Source: Simmondsia chinensis
Lineage: Eukaryota > Streptophyta > Magnoliopsida > Caryophyllales > Simmondsiaceae
NCBI GenBank assembly: GCA_018398585.1
Contig: JAGTTD010000024.1
Coordinates: 5,608,071-5,672,070 of the forward strand
Length of the DNA: 64,000 nucleotides
Direction: 5' to 3'
Below are positions 4,115-59,400 of the stretch, piece after piece. Position numbers and translations under genes: made by a program. Within the stretch, counting starts at the first letter, position 1; every line of letters starts with the position of its first letter. The notes beneath the pieces are model-generated. The model was not told where the DNA came from. It worked only from the letters and a program-made list of their open reading frames with translations, and did no database searches.

Positions 4115-5166
4115 CACTCATTTGGCTTCTTCCACTTCAAACTCGCAGGCCCGACACTCAGTGTTATTATGGCCAGGTGCCTGATCGTACTGACACCATC
4201 TAGCCTCCCCATCCTCGACACATGACGAGGCCTCATGAGGGTTTCTTTGTGCGGCCTTCTTCTTTACCTCCATAAGAGGCCGGGGGGCTCCCTATTTGGG
4301 AGCGGAGTTTTGCACGTGTCTTGTGGTTCGATATGTATTCCTCTACAGCCACTTTGGGTTTTCCCTTTAACTAGAGCGGTTACCCTGATGGAAGTTTGCT
4401 TGCCTTGGTATGGACCGTACTACCTCCTCGGCAGAGATGTACTTATTAGCCTTGTTCCATAGTTCATCAATTGTAGAAATTTTCCCCTTAGCAAGGGCAA
4501 ATTTAAAGCTCGAATTCTGCAACTCGTTGATGAAAGCGGTGATGGTTGTTTCATCAGCGAGGTTGGCGATGTCAATCATGGCGCGGGTAAACTGGTGCAC
4601 GTAGCCTCTCAGTGATTCATTTTCGTGCTGTTGCAACTTGAGTAGATGCGTGGCGGTTTTCCTTCTTCTTTTGTTGCTGACAAAATCACGAACGAACCTT
4701 TCTAACAGCTCAGCGAAGCTGTGAATGGATGAGTTTGGGAGTGACGCAAACCAGTTTTGGGCTTCCCGCTTTAAGGTGGCAGGAAAGCACTTGCACCAAA
4801 CATCCTCACCTTCGTCTTGTAAGTACATCCGCGCCATAAAGCCTGCTAGATGATCCTCCAGGTCTTGAGTTCTGTTGAATAGTTCAATGTTCGGATTTTT
4901 GTCTTCCCTACCAGGGCCATTAAGATCCTGAGAGTAAAAGGCAAATGTGTGCCCAGTATTTGGGGTATCATGCCAGGCCTTCCCCGCCTCTCCCCGTTTC
5001 TCTTATTGCCTTGGGTAGGATCACGGTAAGCACTGGCTGTCGACTCGGCAACTTCATCTGAGGCTTGTACACTTGTGGGTTGGAATTTCGTATGGGCTAC
5101 TGGAAACTGATCGAGACCCAAGGTTCTCCCTGCCAGTTTCACTCCATTACTAACATCATTAGACAT
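4115..5166 (-). pseudogene. gypsy 1 gag (capsid and zinc knuckle)
   Basis: The gag begins with MSNDVSNGVKLAGR (5166) and, after a stop, continues at 4367-4837 with the retrotransposon gag core (FPATLKREAQNWFASLPNSS, then FVRDFVSNKRRRKTATHLL). Downstream, near 4140-4200, a Cys-rich string (WCQYDQAPGHNNTECRACEF) marks the nucleocapsid zinc knuckle. Start codon and core are separated by a stop, so the gene is broken. Confidence 0.8.
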
Positions 5167-19474: not shown

Positions 19475-20055
19475 CTAGATACCGTGCTCTAGTAGTTCAA
19501 CTGCCCAAGCCAGCATTCTTCCCAAGCATTCAAGCTGCCGGAGCGATTTTTGAAGGGGTTGATTGGTTTGTATCTGGATTCGATGCGTTTGGAAGTAGGG
19601 ACGAAGTTTCTTGGCGGCCATGACGGTGGCATAGGTGAGCTTTTCGATGTGGGGGTATCGTCTCTCCAAATCTTGGAATATTTGACACACAAAGTAGACC
19701 GGTTTCTGGTCATTTCCCTTCTCAAACACCAATACAGCGCTTACTGTGTTGTCCAATGCTGCTATGTAAAGGATCAATTCTTCTCTAGTGGCTTGTTTTG
19801 ATATGGTGGGGAGTTTTGCTAGGTGTTCTTTGAGTTCTTGGAAGGCTTGTTCGTAGGTTTCGTCCCACCTGAAGCCCTCCCTGCCGTGCAAGATCTTGAA
19901 GAAAGGGAGAGACCCATCCACTAGGCGGCTAATGAACCTATTGAGTGTGGTTAGGCAACCTGTCAGCTTTTGGATATCTTTTGACGTCTTTCGGGTCACC
20001 ATTCTCAAGATCGCATTCACTTTGGCAGGATAGGCTTCTATTCCTCTCGAGCTTA
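19475..20055 (-). pseudogene. gypsy 2 reverse transcriptase thumb and RNase H
   Basis: The frame starts at SSRGIEAYPAKVNAILRM, continues with the connection (TSKDIQKLTGCLTTLNRFIS, LPFFKILHG, FRWDETYEQAFQELKEHL), and then the retroviral-type RNase H (LILYIAALDNTVSAVLVFE, RRYPHIEKLTYATVMAAKKL, RMLAWAVELLEHGI). The frame upstream of SSRGIEAYP belongs to the solo LTR insert; the missing front part of the enzyme lies at 21485-21990. Confidence 0.85.
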
Positions 20056-20212
20056 TGATGCGTGCCGAGCACAGCAAATTAAAATTAAACTCTAAATCAA
20101 CCTGACTAACTAGTAGATAGGGGAAGTAGAGGTTGATCCCACGAGGGTTAAAGTGTTTCAATTATCTAAATTCGAGTTTCCTAAATAACTAATCTAATAA
20201 CGCAAGTAAATT

Positions 20213-25132: not shown

Positions 25133-25950
25133 TGGCAACAATTGGTGCTCTTCATTCAATTCTTAAGCACAATGTACTCACTGGACCGAATTATTTTACG
25201 TAGAAAAAGAATTTGGACGTAATTCTAATTCACGAGGGTCACAAGTTTGTTCTTACTGACGCTCATCCTCCAGTTCCTACTACTAATTCTACAGCTACTG
25301 TTAAAAAGCATCACGAACGCTAGCAAAAGGCTAATGAGTTAGCTAGATGTTACATATCGACCTCTGTGTCTAATGTTCTCAAGCATCATATGCTTGAGAT
25401 GCAAACAGCAGCTGAGATGATGAAACATTTGGAAGAAATGTTCAAAGAACAGTGTAAAGCAGTGAGGCAAGAACTGATACGGATGTTGCTCAACATGAGG
25501 ATATCCAAAGGAATACCAGTTGAGAAACACATTATGAATTTGATGGCATGTTTTTCTGAACTGAAAATCCTTGGAGCTGAGTTTGACAGTCAAACTAAGC
25601 AGGATATCATCCTCAGTTTTTTGTCCAGTTAATTCGCTCAGTTCGGGCTGAATTTTTTATGAGTAACAAGGACTATTCATTGCCTAAGCTAACGAAAGAG
25701 CTGCAAATAACAAAGGACTTGATGCAGGCCAAAGGAAGTGTCCACTTGACCTAGGCATCAAGGACGAGTGAGAGTAAGCAAGCCATAGGAAAGTATTTCC
25801 TCTGCAAAAAAAAGAGCCATTGAAAAAGGAGCTGCACTAAGCATTTAGCTACCCTTCCTGCCAAGACTGGCAAACCATCTGGTGAAGGCATTAATGATAT
25901 CTCACTTAATCGAGTCATGTGTAGTTGAGAGTCCACCGGATTCCTAGTGT
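25133..25950 (+). pseudogene. copia 2 gag
   Basis: Starts MATIGALHSILKHNVLTGPN and continues through stops as FTWKKNLDVILIHEG-like text (the tryptophan codon reads TAG), KANELARCYISTSVSNVLK, then the open part 25366-25632 with MQTAAEMMKHLEEMF and GIPVEKHIMNLMACFSELKI. This is the UBN2-type copia gag core. The nucleocapsid knuckle at 25795-25840 is degraded. Confidence 0.75.
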
Positions 25951-26960
25951 GTGGACTCAGGTTCAATTTACCATGTCTATAATATGTTACAAGGACTCAA
26001 GTTAGCCAGGAGGCTACTTGATGGAGAAGTGTACCTGACAGTTGGAGATGGTACAAGAGTTACGATCTTAACAGTAGGAGATTTTAGCTTAATTTTTAGT
26101 GGTAGATTTTTAATTTTGAAAGACTATTTATTTGTACCTACATTATACAGGAATCTGATTTTTGTTTCTCGTTTAGTTAATAATGAATATTCAATTAATT
26201 TCAAGTCTAGATTTGTCATTAAAAGAAATAAATTGTTTATTTGTAAAGGTACAAGTGTGGATGGTTTATTCATGTTATTTCTTGTTCAGAACTTTGTTGA
26301 TTGTTCATATGAATATAACACAAGCTCACTTGTTCAATCTCGTAAACGAAGACACTCCAAAAAGGATAACGCCTTCACATGGCACCAATGTCTAGGTCAC
26401 ATTAATTTGAACATGATCCAAAGACTAGTAAAAGATGGACTGGTAGAACTTTTGGATTTGAAGTCTTTACTAGTCTGTGAATCCTGCACAGGAGGTAAAA
26501 TGACCAAGTTATTATTTAAGAGTAAAGGCAACAGAGTTGGTAACTTGCTTGAGCTGGTTCACACAAATGTGTGTGGACCAACCAATGTTGAAGAAAGAGA
26601 TGGATATGAGTACTTCATCAACTTTCACGGATGATTACTCAAGGTAAGGACATGTATGCCTAATGAGGCATAAGTCTGACTCTTTTGAAAAGTTCAGAGA
26701 GGTCAAGGCTAAAGTTGAAAAGCAGTTAAGTAAACATGTCAAGGCACCTTAATCAAATTGAGCTGGTGAGTACCTTTTAGGAGAGTTTATGGATTTCCTA
26801 ACTGCAAATGAGATAAGATCTCAACTTTTTGCTCCAGTACTGCACAGCAGAATAGTGTTGCAGAAAGAAGGAACATGACACTACTAGAGATGGTATGATC
26901 CATGATGAGTCATTTTATTTACCAATCTCTTTTTAGGGTTATACCTAAAAAATAGTTGCA
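25951..26960 (+). pseudogene. copia 2 protease end, GAG-pre-integrase and integrase start
   Basis: The 227-aa frame at 25951-26634 contains MDSGSIYHVYNMLQGLKL (protease DSGS), RFLILKDYLFVPTLYRNLIF, and the pre-integrase block FTWHQCLGHINLNMIQRLVK and CESCTGGKMTKLLFKSKGNR, then DGYEYFINF of the integrase. Downstream (26640-27130) integrase motifs appear only in shifted pieces (VAERRNMTLLEM near 26855; FGCPTHVLKKNLDKLESRT near 27045). Confidence 0.8.
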
Positions 26961-42469: not shown

Positions 42470-44470
42470 TGGTAAAAACACAAGAAGGACATGTTTCAGG
42501 CAATCGATATAGTGAACAAAATTCGGGTCCAGACAACATATCAGTGTTGCATCTTCAAGACCAGCATCGGTCAGAGGATGTTTGGCATTGAGCGGTATGT
42601 TAATAATTTATGTTTAACCATAAAATATTATATTTTAAATTTGAATAGTTGAGTGGTATATTTGATGTCTCGTGTTCCAGGGCGACGACGAGATCAGGGT
42701 GAGGTAACACTATCTGTTAGCCCTTCACCATGCAGTACAACCTTATATTGTACAGGCCTGTTTTATTGGAGTGACCCGAATAGGTTATCTCCTAATTGAT
42801 AACTCCTTGATTAGTGCTTTGGTAGAGAGGTGGAGGCGGGAGACTCATAAATTCCACCTACGTGTTGGCAAGATAATGCCAACACTGCAAGATGTAGCCG
42901 TTTTACTGGGTTTAGGTACAGACGGCATGGCAGTCACTGATACCTCTAATTATAATTGGAGGAACCTGGGCCAAAATTTATTAGGTGCAGCTCCCCCTTC
43001 GGGGCAATTGCATGGTGGCATTATCAAAAGTCGATGGTTGAAGGAACAGTTTCGACATAGCCCCCCCAATGACGCTGATGAGCAAGTGTTGTTGCAGCAC
43101 GCTAGAGGCTACATCCTCCATTTGATCGACTCCGTGATATTCACCAACACATTGATAGTTGGAAATCGCTCATCTTCCTACTATTACTTGATACAATGGA
43201 AGAGTGTAGGTTATACAGTTGGGGGTCCGTAGTGCTCGCCAACCTTTATAGATAGCTATGTCGATGTTGCATGAAGGGCGGCAAGCAACTCGATGAATGT
43301 GTTTTATTGCTCCACATATGGACCTCAATGATATTCATGTTTAAGTTTTTTCTCATGTGTCATATTTCTAATTTTTACAATTTATCATGTGTAGTTAGGG
43401 TCATAGGAACATTTACACATCGATCGACCAATTGTCACCGTTCGACGTCAAAATCAAGCTGCAGCTAATAATTCAGTGCCACCATTGGTCGCTCAATAAG
43501 AGAAAATATTCCGTACATCTTACTTTAATGTATATGTAATATTATATATATATATATATTGTAATATAATTCATTGTATATTTAATCAGATGGTGTGCCA
43601 CCATGACATTCCGCGAGAATCCAAGGCATTGTCAGTCCTTCTACAGGGACCAACTTAATGTCCAAGAACCTCATCAAGTATATACATGAAAATAAACATA
43701 TTTCTTTGTCGTTCAATATTTACTGTAATGACCAAGTTATTTTGTCTATTGCTAAGTCAATTGGACGCCGTACCGGCAATCCCGATTAGACTCTTTGCTT
43801 GAGATTTGTGTTGAAGGTCGTTGATATGCTTTGGCTTTGTAGAATTACATTGTCCCGACATAGTGTTACGTCAGTTTGGATTGACGCAGCATATCCCAGA
43901 TCCTGTTGACACTCTCGACTCATTACATAATACATCTCGTCTGGGCAGGTGCGACAAGAACTGGGTTGTCTACCATCCGAACTGACTCGAGTTGTGGACC
44001 ACTCGGATGCATTGCATCGCCAACGTCTGTAATCCTCTAATATCGCCTAGAGAATACATGCAACGATACTTATCTATCACTAGACGTGTCATCGCACAGC
44101 GAGAGATGCATGTTTTGCGCTGCTCCTAGCTTCGTTTTGACCCAAATGGCAACCATTTTTAACAAGTAATAAGCACTTTAAAAATATTAGTCTTGTTACT
44201 TATTTTATATTACGTTTTTATTAACATTTAAAAGTAATATATGCTAGGTCGATTTTGTTAAAAATCATACTAGAAGAGCAGCTCGGGTGCTAAGTAACAG
44301 TGTTGGCCACATTACACAATCTGTCTCCACAAATCGGCTTACTAGTTGCGGTAACGTACTGAATGTTGTCAATGAGGAACACCAATTTAGACAAATTCTG
44401 CAAGATGAAGGTGTTGACTACCGCTCTTTACCTACTGTAGAAGAAAGTAGACGAGAACTTCCTCCATGAG
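42470..44470 (+). pseudogene. PMD gene, right arm (copy 3)
   Basis: First exon-like piece with SGPDNISVLHLQDQHRSEDV (about 42525-42590), typical of PMD protein starts. PMD core at 42771-43232: GYLLIDNSLISALVERWRRE, THKFHLRVGKIMPTLQDVAV, NLGQNLLGAAPPSGQLHGGI. C-terminal end near 44287-44469: QFRQILQDEGVDYRSLPTVE. It follows the transposase by about 200 bp. Confidence 0.8.
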
Positions 44471-53481: not shown

Positions 53482-56400
53482 TTCTTTCTCTCTAAATAGG
53501 AAAGACTACATTTTCACAGTTCCATTGTAAAGCTTGATTCTCTGAGAACAGTAGAGAACACGGAATCAAATCAGGTCCAAGATCATGGTAATTGGGAAGC
53601 GTGGTATCATGGATGTCACACAACGGGTTGCAGTGAGGCCTATACAGCAGACTAATATTTATACCTTTTAGATAGTTTTTATTATCAAAATATGTTTATA
53701 AATAAATTTTAGTAAATAAAACACATATGCTTTTGGGATCACAAGAGCAACATCATTAACAACCTTTCTCTCGGTCGATTTGAAAATATTGTCGATAAAT
53801 GAGCCATTATTGAAGGTTGTGGAGAGACAGAAGGTGGAGACGATGGTGGAGGAGAGACAGATGATTGCAGGGCCAGATGGACAAGCTGGTGTAGCAGAGG
53901 AAAGAGATGGGTGTCCCTGGTTGCACCACTAGGGTTTTCATGGCGAAACGATGGTGGTGGAGGTAGAAGGGAGGGAGCAGATGGTGGCTAGAAAGACTGC
54001 ATAGGTTGCCAGGGTTTTAATTTCCTTTAAAATTCTTGGCAAATGCTGGGAAAGGAAGGAAGAACACAGTTCCCTTTCCTTTTATAAGCAAAGCAATTAC
54101 CATACATTGCATCTTTTCTCTCTCTTCTCATTTCCCTTTCTTTTCCTTTCTAGGGAATATTAGAAAACCAAATATATCCTCAATGCCATTTAGTGAGAGA
54201 ACAAAAATTAACATCAACAGCAATGAATAACATTTAGTGATATAGGCCAGTTTTCCAAACTTACGTTTCTGAAGCAGATGAATTTCTATAGCCCTGAGAC
54301 AAAAAGGTCAAATGAGGTCAGTAATGTAAGTAAACAGTGCCTCAATTTAGAATATCAGAGTCTGCCTTAAAACAGGGAAAAAGCAATCTTCTGATGCACA
54401 AAATAGCAAAATCTTTCAATGGAAATTCACCAACATACTTCCAATCTAGTGATGAACACAGGCTGTCCTTGTCTTTGTCCAGATAAATTTCCCTGTGATT
54501 ATATAAATAGCAAGTTGGTCAGTGGTGCAACATGACGTTGAATCAAGAAAGTAGTAAGTCTTATCTTCAGTGGGACCTGAAGAAAATCTGACAATACGAC
54601 TTATGGTTCATAAAAGTAGGTCTAATATGTGGATTCTCAATACGAGCACAAAGTAGATATAAGACAAGCCTTATTATGTCAAAAGTGTACCAAAATAAGT
54701 TTCATCTCAGTAGAACACTGAACTAGAGTTTCATGTATATTGGTAGAAATTCTTCATCAGGAAACGGAATAAATGGAAAGGGTGACTAGAGCACAGTTTT
54801 CCAAACAGCTTAACATCAAGGGACACTCACAAGGAATCTCTTCTATGGCAAATCAGTTAGACTCAGGACACTGTATCATTGAAATTATGGGAACATACAT
54901 ATTGGCACATGCACGAATTATAATCAATCCTAGCCTACTTCTTTGGCATTACAAACATCTCGCAGTGCTGATTATGTACTCTTTACCTATACAGAAGGGC
55001 AAGGGATAAAGGGATTTTCTATCAAAACATCATGGGATACTAGAGAACCTGCCTTCCAAATTTATCAGCAATGTAAAGGTAAATATGATGTACCTCCCAG
55101 ACTTTGACATATTTGGATTGTGCTGGTATAGAAGTCGAAGCCTGCTGAGACATGGACATATTAGTAGCTGGATTGCTCACCCCAACAGAGTGCAATCCTG
55201 GTTGTACTTGCTGAGGCATTCCCGGTGTTGGCATCATGGGGCTGGTGCCAGAAGATGCAACATTGGATCCAAGGTTATTCATCATATTTTGAGCCATGCC
55301 AGTACCACTTGGTGCCATTTGTGGAGCATTTCCTTGATTCATGCCTGATACTGACTGACCCATGGCAGTGCCAACACCTCCTTGAAGATTATTTAATGGC
55401 TGTGAAACACCCAGGTTAGAACTTGCAGAGCCATTGGAAGTTGCAGTAGTAAATGAACCGAGAGCTGGGTTTTGTAAAGGTTGCGAAGTTCCTGTCATTG
55501 GTCCAGAACCAGATATTGCAGTGATGCCAGATTGCCCAGACGATAATACAGTTTGAGGAGGCACTGAAGATGCCATTCCACTGGATATCATGTTTGACAT
55601 GTGCATACCGATAGAGTTCCCACCAATCGAAGGTAAGCCTAGAGAGGTACCCCCTGTGAGGGCAGCAGAGTTCATTAACCGGGCTTGAGAGATATTGTTC
55701 AGTATGGCACCAACAGGCCGCAAGGGCTGTGACATGCTAACTATCGGTTTTAACTCTGGCATATTGTCAGTACTAGAAATCAGCTCCTGAGATACAGAAG
55801 GCGGTGAAGATGCCTGTAACCCAGGCACACTTGGAGAAGTAGTTGCACGAGGAACCGATGGCATGTGAGGAAGAACAGGTCCAGAAGCCATGGAAGAGAC
55901 CGCGCTTGGCTCCTGCAAGAGTACATTATATGATATCAAGACCACTATATAAGCTTAATCAAATAGCCATGATATTAAACTAAACAAAGTGATAAGGATG
56001 CCTTACAACTTTAACGGTTGCTTGATTAATATTTCCAACAGAGATAGGCGGTCGATTCATCACAGTTCCATTTGCTGGAAGAAAATGGAAGTTAACAAGC
56101 CATGGAAAGAAAGTCAAGTGGCACAAGTGAATGCTGATACAATATTCAAACATATCCCCCCACCCCTTCTCATAATGCCAAGGTGATTCTACGAGGAAAA
56201 CAAGGAAATCTTGAGGATTGAGGATTGCATGCATGAAAGTTGTGAAATAAAAAACCTGTTCCTACACAACCAAAAATATGACAAGTTGATAGAGATAGAG
56301 GAGGAAAGAATGAGATCTACATTGAAGACAAATTATATCGTTGTAATTTTATATTTTAAAGCTTTTAATTAGGTTAGATATTAGGATTAGATTTTGTATT

Positions 56401-59400
56401 TATTTGATAATTATTAGATTAGGAGTTTATCATGTTATCATGTTAGTTTTAGATTAGTTTGTTATTATCTCTAAAGAGTTTCTTTTCCTTTAAGACTTCA
56501 GTTTTATATTTCTATAGATAGGGATGTAAACATAGCTTGAAAAGCAGATCATTATACTATTGAATAAAATTTCATTTTTTCCTATTTTCTTAAGTACAAT
56601 ACTGCTTAAAGCTAATTGCAAGGATCCTTAGTTGGGTGGACACATGGCTGTTCAACCATCCTCCTAAGCACAGGGATGCTTAGGATCCCTTCGATTAAGC
56701 ACAGGGATGCTTAATCTCTATCAAATTGGTATGAGAGCAAGTTTCGATCCACCGCTTCTGTTGCTACCACCACCACCGATCATCATTCACCACCACCTTC
56801 ACCCCTTTCCAATCTTCATCACCCACGTTCAATTCAGTTTCACAAAAAAAAAAAAAAAAAAAAAAAATTTCCACCTACCCCTTTGTCATCTTTACCTATT
56901 TCCGCCCCAAAAAAAAAATAATAATAATAAAAAATAAATCTAATCTACGACACTTGCCGGAACCCTAGGCCACAGCCACCACAACCGCCGACCCCAAAAA
57001 GCCACCTGAATCCTGGCACCGACATAAACCCTCGCCAGAAACCTACACCCAAGTCCCGCACCATACCTAAAAACCCTAGATCTGAAAATCCGATCACCAC
57101 AAACCCCTCCCTGTCGACCACCCTAACCAGCCACCGCCTGTAAAACCTAGATTTGAACTCTTGTGGCACAGGGTATGATGATGATGACGACGACGACCAA
57201 GGACCATCTACCCAAATCCACTGCTGATCTAAATCCTCGCCAAAACAAACACCAAAAGCTTAAATCCACATATTAACCCTAGATCTTAAAAATAAAAAAA
57301 AAAGGAATTGAGAGAAGAAAAAGAAAATGAAAACCCCACCCTCCAGTGCTGGTCTCCTCCGCTACCGTTTGCCTCCAACTCTACTATTTGCCACCGCCGC
57401 AGTTACCACCATCGTCCCGAGGTCGCTGGTCACCTCCATCATCGAACCTCGCCGTCTCTCCTGCCTGTCAGTTCTGGTCGAGTCTAGACCAGTGAGAAAC
57501 CCTAATTTGGGTTAATTTTGGGCTAAAAAGGTTAGACTTCATGTTCTTTTTAGATTAAAAGGGTTTTCTAAAAAGTTGAGATATGAACCTAATATCGGAG
57601 AGAGCAATAAATAAGTCAGAGAGAAATCTTGAGATCACTGGAAATCAACTACTTACTATCCCTCCAGATTTAGATAATGAGCTCCTCTCATTACCCAATA
57701 CTACTTTGGCACATCTTGTCAAAGTAGAATTATCATCGTCGAAGTCCAGGAAGGATGCATTTTCTCCATTGATGAAAGCATTAGTAAGTGATCAACTCTT
57801 GAAACACCATGATCCTGACATAAAAGTTGCAGCTGCTATTTGCCTCAGCGAAATTACAAGGATTACAGCTCCAGATGCACCTTATGATAATAATCAACTG
57901 AAAGAGGTATTTCAATTGATTGTGTCATGTTTTGAGAAATTATTTGACATGTCCAACAGATCCTACAACAAGAGAGTTAGGATTCTTCAAATTATGGCAC
58001 TCTCTAGATCTAGTTTGATGATATTAGATCTTAAATGTGGTGGCTTGATCCTTGAGATGTTTCAACACTTCTTCAGATCGATAAGATACTTTCATGATGG
58101 CACGGTGTTTTCTTATATGAAGATGATTATGATACTGATCTTACATGAGAGTGATGATGTATCACCCGAGCTGCTGTTATGCATCTTAGAGATTATTAAG
58201 AAGGGCAATAACGAAGTCTTGTCTATTACTCAAAGACTTGTGAAAGGAGTAATCAAAAGAACTGCCGAAAAACTTAAACCGTGCCTTGCTTACTTGGTGG
58301 AATTTTATGGAATTTCCTTGGACAAATACAGTAAGGTGGTTGGTAACATATGTCCAGCAGTGCCTATTATAACCGAACCCATAAAAAAGCATGATTTTGA
58401 AGAGCAAGATTTTGAGGAAGTTTCATACGAAGAGGAAGCAATACTTGCAAATGATGAATTAGAACAACGAAGTTCTGAAAAGAAGCATAGCATTCAACAA
58501 TTAGACGAGAAAGATGATTGCAACAAAGCAGTTCTAGCCAAACAAGAGATGATAGTAGATGATGTTGAGCATATTGACTTCATTATTCCCAATGACACTT
58601 ATTTTGATCAAAAGGCTCATTCCCTGATCATGATGCTACATCAACAGGAAAGGATTGAGATTGGTCAATTTGTTGTGTTGTGTCTCGCCTTGAGGATGCA
58701 CTTTTCGTACTTCATTCAATTCATCCTGCCCTATTACAAAACTCGAGGTTGAGTTTTTTGCAACCGGGGGAGATTAATAAAGATAGAGGAGGAAAGAATG
58801 AGATCTACATTGAAGATATTAGAAGATAAATTATATTGTTGTAATTTGTATATTTTAAAGCTTTTAATAAGGTTAGATATTAGGATTAGATTTCATTTTT
58901 TATTTTATTCCAATTTTATTTGATAATTTTTAAATTAGAAGTTTATCGTGTTAGTTTTAGATTAGTTTGTTATTATCACTAAAGAGTTTCTTTTCCTTCA
59001 AGACTCTAGTTTTATATTTCTATAAATAAGTATGTGACCATAGCTTGAAAGGTAAATCATTATACCATTGAACAAAATTTCGCTCTTTCCTATTTTCTTA
59101 AGTACAGGGCTGTTTAAAAGTACATACTTAGTTGGTTGGGTACAGGGCTGTTCAACCGTCCTCCGAAGCACAAGAATGCTTAGGAACCCTTCGATTGGGC
59201 ACAAGAATGCTTAATCTCTATCACAAGTAATGTCATGAACTATTAAAACTAACAAGAGCCCTCGCTCCCATATGCAATTAAAAGTAACAACCTGACGGTA
59301 AAGAAGTAGCCGCTGACCCCGGAGGTAGAGACGGGGCTGAATTCTGATTTGGCACCAAGCCTGAGCGACTCAGAGAAAGAAGGGCCTCCATGAAACTCTC

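What the first reader, a model, noticed from the sequence alone, without database searches (positions are those of the whole stretch)
56287..59223. LTR retrotransposon that captured a PDS5 (cohesin cofactor) coding region
All structural marks of a retrotransposed unit are present (paired LTRs, 5-bp target duplication, primer site, purine tract), yet its only ORF is PDS5-like, intronless and 389 codons long. An ORF that stays open while the LTRs have diverged hints at selection or recent amplification of the family.
Basis: partly seen in the sequence, partly recalled or inferred. Interest (0 to 1): 0.87.

Follow-up and report, generated by a model that had tools for sequence, protein, structure and literature searches.

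The report
Retrotransposon family carrying selected PDS5 gene
A family of jumping genes in this plant has carried a spliced copy of the host's chromosome-cohesion gene PDS5 through its spread, with natural selection keeping the PDS5 part intact, and beech seems to show the same kind of theft independently, which suggests that the stolen protein helps the element.

Summary
In detail: 56287-59223 is a 2,937-bp LTR element (LTRs 437/449 bp, TSD CAAGT, primer site, purine tract) whose only ORF over 80 aa (389 aa) has a PDS5 N-terminal domain (residues 51-236, Pfam E 4.5e-45) plus a non-PDS5 tail. It is no lone pseudogene: 26 of 30 loci read show LTR pairs, and about 129 places in the 831-Mb genome match the ORF (weak ones unchecked). 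Codon ML on 29 copies: the PDS5 part has omega 0.18 on internal and 0.54 on terminal branches; the tail is neutral in the same copies. So selection acted during propagation and copies decay after insertion. Two PDS5 genes of this genome have three introns that the ORF lacks, and the family groups with them (98%): capture of spliced RNA in this lineage. Beech holds two further PDS5-plus-tail protein types; a common origin is rejected (AU), though their LTRs were not seen. LTR end, primer site and purine tract resemble a chromodomain Ty3/gypsy element, a relative of the probable helper. The role is inferred: interference with PDS5C-type silencing or cohesin partners. Novelty: new cargo and apparent repeated capture within a known kind.

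The parts
56282..56286 (.). target-site duplication CAAGT, left copy
56287..56723 (+). 5' LTR (437 bp), TGATAGAGAT...ATCTCTATCA
56727..56738 (+). primer binding site, tRNA-iMet type (TGGTATGAGAGC; TGGTATCAGAGC exact in 9 of 30 loci)
   Evidence: tRNA identity recalled
56739..57582 (+). 5' internal leader, poorly conserved between copies (many ORF-bearing matches start near element position 1150-1290)
57583..58752 (+). PDS5-derived ORF, 389 aa plus stop
57733..58290 (+). PDS5 N-terminal HEAT domain (residues 51-236), the part under purifying selection; host intron sites absent at about 57903/57904, 58085/58086 and 58212/58213
   Evidence: the nucleotide places of the absent introns were worked out by hand from the alignment
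58291..58749 (+). C-terminal tail (residues 237-389), not PDS5, neutrally evolving; model mostly below pLDDT 50 with a helix 342-387 of low to middling confidence
58766..58774 (+). polypurine tract GGGGGAGAT; CAACCGGGG shared with the chromovirus-type element L062
58775..59223 (+). 3' LTR (449 bp)
59224..59228 (.). target-site duplication CAAGT, right copy

Best explanation
A non-autonomous LTR retrotransposon, probably mobilised in trans by a Ty3/gypsy chromovirus with matching LTR ends, primer site and purine tract, took up spliced RNA of a host PDS5C-type gene once in this plant's lineage, has no gag-pol, and spread to many copies. The PDS5 domain was kept by purifying selection in the lineages that went on transposing and decays after insertion, so its protein matters to the element (shown statistically). 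Most likely role (inferred, about 35%): the protein, PDS5 HEAT/ARM repeats without a Tudor domain, competes with host PDS5C/E for partners in RNA-directed DNA methylation or cohesin unloading and so eases silencing of the family. Similar but independent captures in beech suggest that the same theft pays repeatedly. The confidence below is for capture, amplification and selection, not for the role.
For: Structure: 26 of 30 loci show an LTR pair; 12 of the 20 loci whose two ends were both found, of 24 tried, have a perfect 5-bp TSD. Family. Selection: PDS5 part omega 0.42, 2dlnL about 150 against omega 1; tail 0.87, about 2.7; PDS5 internal 0.179, bootstrap 5-95% 0.129-0.249, terminal 0.540, 2dlnL 40; tail 0.98/0.82. 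Lys at 151 in 29 of 29 copies, Glu at 96% of 56 host-type proteins. Introns. Donor lineage: (element clade 100, with both host genes 98; 12 of the 29 copies in that tree). Helper. Silencing link: passages of PMC8184781 (RDM15: N-terminal ARM repeat, C-terminal Tudor, binds NRPE3B of Pol V) and PMC12859917 (PDS5C/E mutants de-repress TEs); TE-borne anti-silencing has a precedent in VANC (passages of PMC13317346).
Against: No transcript, protein or methylation data. The loop that docks Wapl-type motifs is relaxed in the copies (exact APDAPY in 5 of 29, against 49 of 56 host-type proteins), against a plain Wapl decoy. Nothing ties the domain to Pol V directly. Only 30 loci were read in full and 29 used for dN/dS. 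The helper is assigned by short end sequences only; one such element was read and its frames are broken. Beech LTRs were not seen.
Confidence: 0.88

Rival explanations
1. Passive passenger: a captured fragment that hitch-hikes, the ORF open only by chance or recency.
For: [quoted passage not shown] 25 of the 29 copies carry at least one stop and 3 more a gap that is not a multiple of three; bases inserted relative to the window ORF were not counted.
Against: Omega 0.18 on internal branches in the PDS5 part while the tail of the same ORF in the same copies is neutral; 43 of 47 host-invariant positions kept.
Confidence: 0.05
2. The PDS5 protein serves the host: one or a few long-lived loci became a domesticated PDS5-like gene and copies are by-products.
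For: The window copy is the only one of 29 with neither stop nor gap in the 389 codons although its LTRs are the third most diverged of 26; chance of staying open if neutral since the LTR split about 0.0013.
Against: Window branch omega in the PDS5 part 0.478 against 0.551 for other tips, in the tail 0.553 against 0.832, neither a significant gain; selection is on internal branches in general; LTRs not sisters, so the dating is unsafe; other copies also have long open frames, such as L027 with 361 and L007 with 348 aa.
Confidence: 0.12
3. The domain acts in the retrotransposition cycle itself, for instance by tethering particles or integrase to cohesin-bound chromatin, in the place of gag.
For: Proteins of the form gag-like+tail and PDS5+tail share a tail in beech and in metagenome contigs, so PDS5 sits where gag sat; the helper-type element has a chromodomain.
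Against: No insertion-site preference was tested; needs a cis advantage that was not shown; Pfam does not recognise gag in P0070.
Confidence: 0.25
4. Camouflage: the host spares the element because siRNAs against it would hit the essential donor gene.
For: Proposed for captured sequences in general (passage of PMC13317346).
Against: Copies and the C22 host gene differ at about 1.4 (window) to 1.9 (median) synonymous substitutions per site, so siRNAs would hardly cross-match; and the constraint is at the amino-acid level.
Confidence: 0.03

Closest known systems
Kaonashi (KIU): Ulp1 domain captured by VANDAL-type MULEs, with the VANC anti-silencing system
   Same: A host domain captured and conserved in a TE family, with a suggested advantage to the TE; VANC relieves silencing of its own family (passages of PMC13317346; search-listing abstracts of PMC10398659 and PMC5735166)
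   Different: Those are DNA transposons with a Ulp1 domain; here an LTR element without pol and with a PDS5 HEAT domain; no anti-silencing effect has been shown here
Bs1 of maize (LTR element with H+-ATPase and other host fragments)
   Same: LTR retrotransposon with transduced host coding sequence and a chimeric ORF (passages of PMC13317346)
   Different: Bs1 took segments of three host genes; here one gene domain, many copies and selection along internal branches
Captured genes of LTR elements in rice and sorghum (surveys cited in PMC13317346)
   Same: Captured sequences in LTR elements, most of about 1,235 rice genes under negative selection, and 1,343 in sorghum (passage of the review)
   Different: Those are genome-wide tallies; here one cargo followed through a family, with internal against terminal branches and a neutral control in the same ORF. 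The originals were not read
LARD/TRIM-type non-autonomous LTR elements
   Same: LTRs, PBS and PPT without gag-pol, moved in trans (definition recalled)
   Different: As a rule they carry no selected coding ORF (recalled)
RDM15/PDS5C (AT4G31880) of Arabidopsis
   Same: The captured part corresponds to an N-terminal ARM/HEAT region such as it has (passages of PMC8184781; that RDM15 is PDS5C is recalled)
   Different: No Tudor domain in the element ORF; Lys151 fixed; APDAP loop relaxed

Membership tests
LTR retrotransposon | paired LTRs, TSD, PBS, PPT | tested here: met
LTR retrotransposon | copies at many sites with different target duplications | tested here: met
   12 of 20 perfect TSDs, of various sequences
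non-autonomous element (LARD-like) | no gag, RT or integrase in the unit | tested here: met
   no other ORF over 80 aa in the window copy. For the family only in part: of 30 LTR loci, 16 have PDS5 sequence within 1.5 kb, 14 do not; 6 of these 14 look like solo LTRs with a TSD of at most one mismatch, L038 has a primer site and was not read further
Ty3/gypsy chromovirus derivative | own RT/IN places it in the lineage | not testable with these tools
   the element has none; LTR end with PBS (88-93% over 44-48 bp in four copies), part of the LTR in three copies other than the window (71-75% over 112-118 bp) and CAACCGGGG at the PPT match the chromodomain element L061/L062
PDS5 protein | PF20168 match and HEAT fold like PDS5 | tested here: met
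   25 of the 26 ten-residue blocks to residue 260 have mean pLDDT of 85 or more; the four hits with E <= 0.001 are PDS5
PDS5 protein | APDAP loop that docks Wapl-type motifs | tested here: inconclusive
   kept in the window copy, exact APDAPY in only 5 of 29 copies
full-length PDS5C/RDM15 | C-terminal Tudor domain | tested here: not met
   Pfam gives only PDS5 and a sub-threshold HEAT in the 389 aa
retro-captured (spliced) gene | introns of the donor absent | tested here: met
   three GT-AG introns in both host genes read, none in the ORF
TE anti-silencing factor | relieves methylation of its own family | not testable with these tools
   needs plants

The most novel reading that the evidence does not exclude
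LTR retrotransposons have stolen the N-terminal part of the same host silencing/cohesin factor, PDS5C, at least three times (once in this plant's lineage, twice in beech) and keep it by selection as a weapon against RNA-directed DNA methylation or cohesin control: a host silencing component turned into a retrotransposon counter-silencing protein.
Probability: 0.3. Interest if true: 0.92.

Novelty: new variant of a known kind. Interest (0 to 1): 0.74.

Why it matters
Captured genes in LTR elements are mostly read as decaying fragments or as raw material for the host. Here a captured domain is kept by selection while the element spreads, with a neutral control inside the same ORF, and the cargo is a protein whose plant relatives take part in TE silencing. 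Repeated independent capture would make PDS5C a target in the conflict between plants and retrotransposons, and the idea is directly testable by expressing the domain in Arabidopsis.

Tried and rejected
Wapl decoy by the APDAP loop: weakened, since the loop is relaxed in the copies. Tudor-domain search for the host gene: the two loci fetched were judged by reading to be MSH6-like (L063) and enhancer-of-polycomb-like (L064), both names recalled; the host genes came from the N-terminal search. A third place there (C11:8280818 and 8281133) has the exon pattern of a host gene but was not fetched. Tail search of this family (P0083, residues 205-361) in 5.8 billion proteins: 109 candidates, none with E <= 0.01. 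Tail homology to the beech-type proteins rests on a short motif: hhalign score 33.8, probability 71.5%, over 13 columns, against at most 19.3 in 30 column-shuffled controls (18 of 20 chosen proteins entered, two had no motif), plus KTRGRVF-C/S-NQ next to the end. The first protein tree, without the host genes, put the family near monocots and Ginkgo; that was replaced once the host genes were in, and the first AU test (fast searches; p 0.003, 0.022, 0.002, 0.045) is superseded. Which host gene is the nearer donor is unresolved (C22 with the element: bootstrap 49; AU keeps both orders). The dS and identity figures for C15 used wrong exon starts and are not used; one search has the right ones. 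Off-frame control for NG86: medians 0.70 and 0.82 against 0.395. The first branch-class fit had not converged and was replaced. In one search the omega-1 runs used kappa on a grid up to 5, which flatters the test for residues 1-50 (free kappa 6.9). In the notebook I called the window LTRs the 4th most diverged of 26; they are the 3rd. Searches failed or came back empty (script faults); one search ended in a fault after printing what is used here.
Full report
What is there. The unit 56287-59223 has a 5' LTR (437 bp), primer site, a leader of about 850 bases, one 389-codon ORF, a purine tract, a 3' LTR (449 bp) and a CAAGT duplication on both sides. The ORF's residues 51-236 are PDS5 (Pfam E 4.5e-45; human PDS5B E 1.5e-18). 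An AlphaFold model has mean pLDDT of 85 or more in 25 of the 26 ten-residue blocks up to residue 260, is below 50 over 272-341, and shows a helix at 342-387 of low to middling confidence; Foldseek's four hits with E <= 0.001 are PDS5 (best 6.2e-7).

It is a family. A search of the window's own genome (831,394,711 bases, 35 contigs) with the element gave 89 matching stretches, 40 scored of 698 candidates; the Pfam PDS5 search gave 44 (44 scored of 220); a plant PDS5 N-terminus gave 152 (146 scored of 306). From the 150 rows listed, after removal of 6 rows with a host-exon pattern (two host genes read, a third presumed), 129 places on 26 contigs remain when rows less than 1.5 kb apart are merged; the weak ones were not checked one by one. 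Of 30 loci read, 26 show an LTR pair (L018 and L019 have the same match coordinates and scores), K2P 0.033-0.174 (the figure for L024 includes ORF sequence of a tandem copy); of 24 tested by script both ends were found in 20, and 12 of these have a perfect 5-bp target duplication. The primer site is exact in 9 of 30 and within two changes in 26 of 30. With the LTR alone, 30 loci were read of 45 matches: 16 have PDS5 sequence within 1.5 kb and 14 do not. Of the 14, six look like solo LTRs with a duplication of at most one mismatch (three perfect); L038 has a primer site and was not read further; the rest are incomplete or undecided.

Selection. 29 copies (L019 dropped as a duplicate of L018) were laid on the window ORF; they carry 0-5 stops each. 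NG86 dN/dS: median 0.395 over 406 pairs in frame, 0.70 and 0.82 in the two wrong frames; 0.25 in the PDS5 part, 0.585 in the tail, 0.516 in residues 1-50; close pairs (dS below 0.1, 11 pairs) 0.66, distant pairs (dS over 0.4, 104 pairs) 0.355. IQ-TREE codon model: PDS5 0.420, tail 0.866, residues 1-50 0.755; against omega 1, twice the log-likelihood difference is 149.5, 2.7 and 11.3 (the last is flattered by the kappa grid). A branch-class codon model of my own, which agrees with IQ-TREE for one omega (0.419, lnL -5102.8), gives the PDS5 part 0.179 internal (24 site bootstraps, 5-95%: 0.129-0.249; internal below terminal in 24 of 24) and 0.540 terminal, 2dlnL 40.4; the tail 0.98 and 0.82; residues 1-50 0.42 and 0.92. 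So the PDS5 domain is constrained while the lineage propagates, copies decay after insertion, and the tail is an internal neutral control. Selection for any open frame alone would not spare the tail.

The window copy. It alone of the 29 has neither stop nor gap over the 389 codons, though others keep long open frames (L027 361, L007 348, L002 341, L029 321 aa), and its LTRs are the third most diverged of 26. If it had drifted neutrally since the LTRs split, it would stay open with probability about 0.0013, but its LTRs are not sisters in the LTR tree. In that tree 13 of 18 pairs are sisters; the window, L010 and L011 are not, and those of L002 and L003 pair crosswise, as if these two had been duplicated after insertion. 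Its own branch omega (0.478 PDS5, 0.553 tail) is not significantly different from that of other tips (0.551, 0.832). I leave this open.

Donor and mode of capture. Two PDS5C-type host genes were read in part: C22 (L065) and C15 (L066). Both have GT-AG introns at three matching places inside the captured part (134, 1000 and 74 bp; 126, 330 and 73 bp) where the ORF is continuous. Median amino-acid identity of the copies is 0.607 to C22 and 0.571 to C15; the host genes are 0.777 alike. In a 45-row tree with 12 of the 29 copies, the copies form one clade (100) that joins C22 and C15 (98), then a Dionaea protein (89). Lys at position 151 is in 29 of 29 copies whereas Glu is in 96% of 56 plant PDS5-type proteins, and both host genes read LDLEC: one capture, then divergence.

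Helper. The string CTATCAAATTGGTATCAGAGC occurs 40 times exactly in the genome (539 with up to one mismatch; 0 for the reversed control). One such site, on C30, lies 1.3 kb before a match to P0070. That element has LTRs of 353 bp (3' copy 90% identical), starts TGATAGAGAT, differs from the window at one of 31 bases across LTR end and primer site, shares CAACCGGGG at the purine tract, and its pieces match zinc knuckle, RT, RNase H, integrase and a chromodomain. Its frames are broken. It is a relative of the probable helper, not shown to be the helper.

Elsewhere. A search with residues 225-355 of P0029 (a metagenome protein) found 24 proteins with E <= 0.01: 9 labelled Fagus sylvatica, 9 from jgi and 6 from ena sources without a named organism. 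They include two PDS5 types joined to a common tail, each with Fagus-labelled members (P0064 and P0065; P0079-P0082), and proteins with the same tail after a gag-like part (P0070, P0075, P0077); P0077 and P0078 are named retrotransposon gag by their source, while Pfam finds nothing in P0070. The tree test rejects one origin for this family and the two beech types (AU p 2.5e-66) and for each pair of them (0.0009, 4e-5, 3e-5), and puts one beech type with the Fagus protein P0054, which looks like a host gene (97); SH does not reject the pair of this family with the first beech type (p 0.15). P0029 and P0040 look like mixtures of the two types, which could disturb such tests. Hence three captures or more, if the beech proteins are in LTR elements. 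The tail similarity between this family and beech is a short motif only.

Mechanism. Shown: element anatomy, spread, spliced capture, selection on the domain. Inferred: helper in trans; the protein works for the element. [quoted passage not shown] that RDM15 is PDS5C is recalled and fits a passage of PMC11519323; loss of PDS5C/E de-represses TEs near genes (one passage of a meeting report, PMC12859917). The element keeps the repeat part and lacks a Tudor part, which is the shape of a competitor. Against a simple Wapl decoy stands the relaxed APDAP loop; that this loop docks Wapl-type motifs is from passages of PMC8198109 and PMC10656103.

Known or new. Gene capture by TEs, selection on genes captured by LTR elements, and TE-coded anti-silencing are known (passages of PMC13317346; search-listing abstracts of PMC10398659 and PMC5735166). 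I found no report of PDS5 in retrotransposons in the held library with the searches, of whose hits I read passages of a few only; most subscription papers are not in that library.

Noticed in passing
window 42708-43229 (+): Plant mobile domain PF10536, E 3.3e-25; that this is the TE-related domain of the MAIL1/MAIN silencing proteins is recalled (PMC5418596 seen as search-listing abstract only).
   Followed up: no
window 55040-55951 (-) and about 59270-59400 (-): Minus-strand stretches on both sides of the element read like a MED25/PFT1 gene (recalled; Pfam gave no match for the first), so the element probably sits in an intron, antisense to the gene.
   Followed up: no
window 4367-5002 (-), 19475-20161 (-), 25948-26634 (+): Pieces of other retrotransposons: gag, RNase H, Copia-type gag-pre-integrase.
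   Followed up: no
G000 C10:10172984-10177000, C5:12256841-12260502, C8:9240677-9244831: PDS5 elements close together on one strand, as in tandem or nested insertions.
   Followed up: no
L018 and L019 (C11:18150504+ and C11:13384058-): Two copies with identical match coordinates and scores in inverted orientation on one contig: a segmental duplication or an assembly artefact.
   Followed up: no
L002 and L003 (C22): Their 5' LTRs and their 3' LTRs pair crosswise in the LTR tree and the right flanks begin alike (GCTTCT): probably one insertion duplicated later.
   Followed up: partly
P0047 (Tanacetum coccineum): A predicted protein with zinc knuckle, RT and a PDS5 domain in one chain: perhaps another capture or a gene-model fusion.
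   Followed up: no
window 58606-58743: The neutral tail ends in a strongly hydrophobic stretch modelled as a helix (residues 342-387), membrane-like in composition by eye.
   Followed up: no
L034, L036, L041, L042, L044, L049: Single LTRs of the family with target duplications of at most one mismatch: solo LTRs from recombination.
   Followed up: partly
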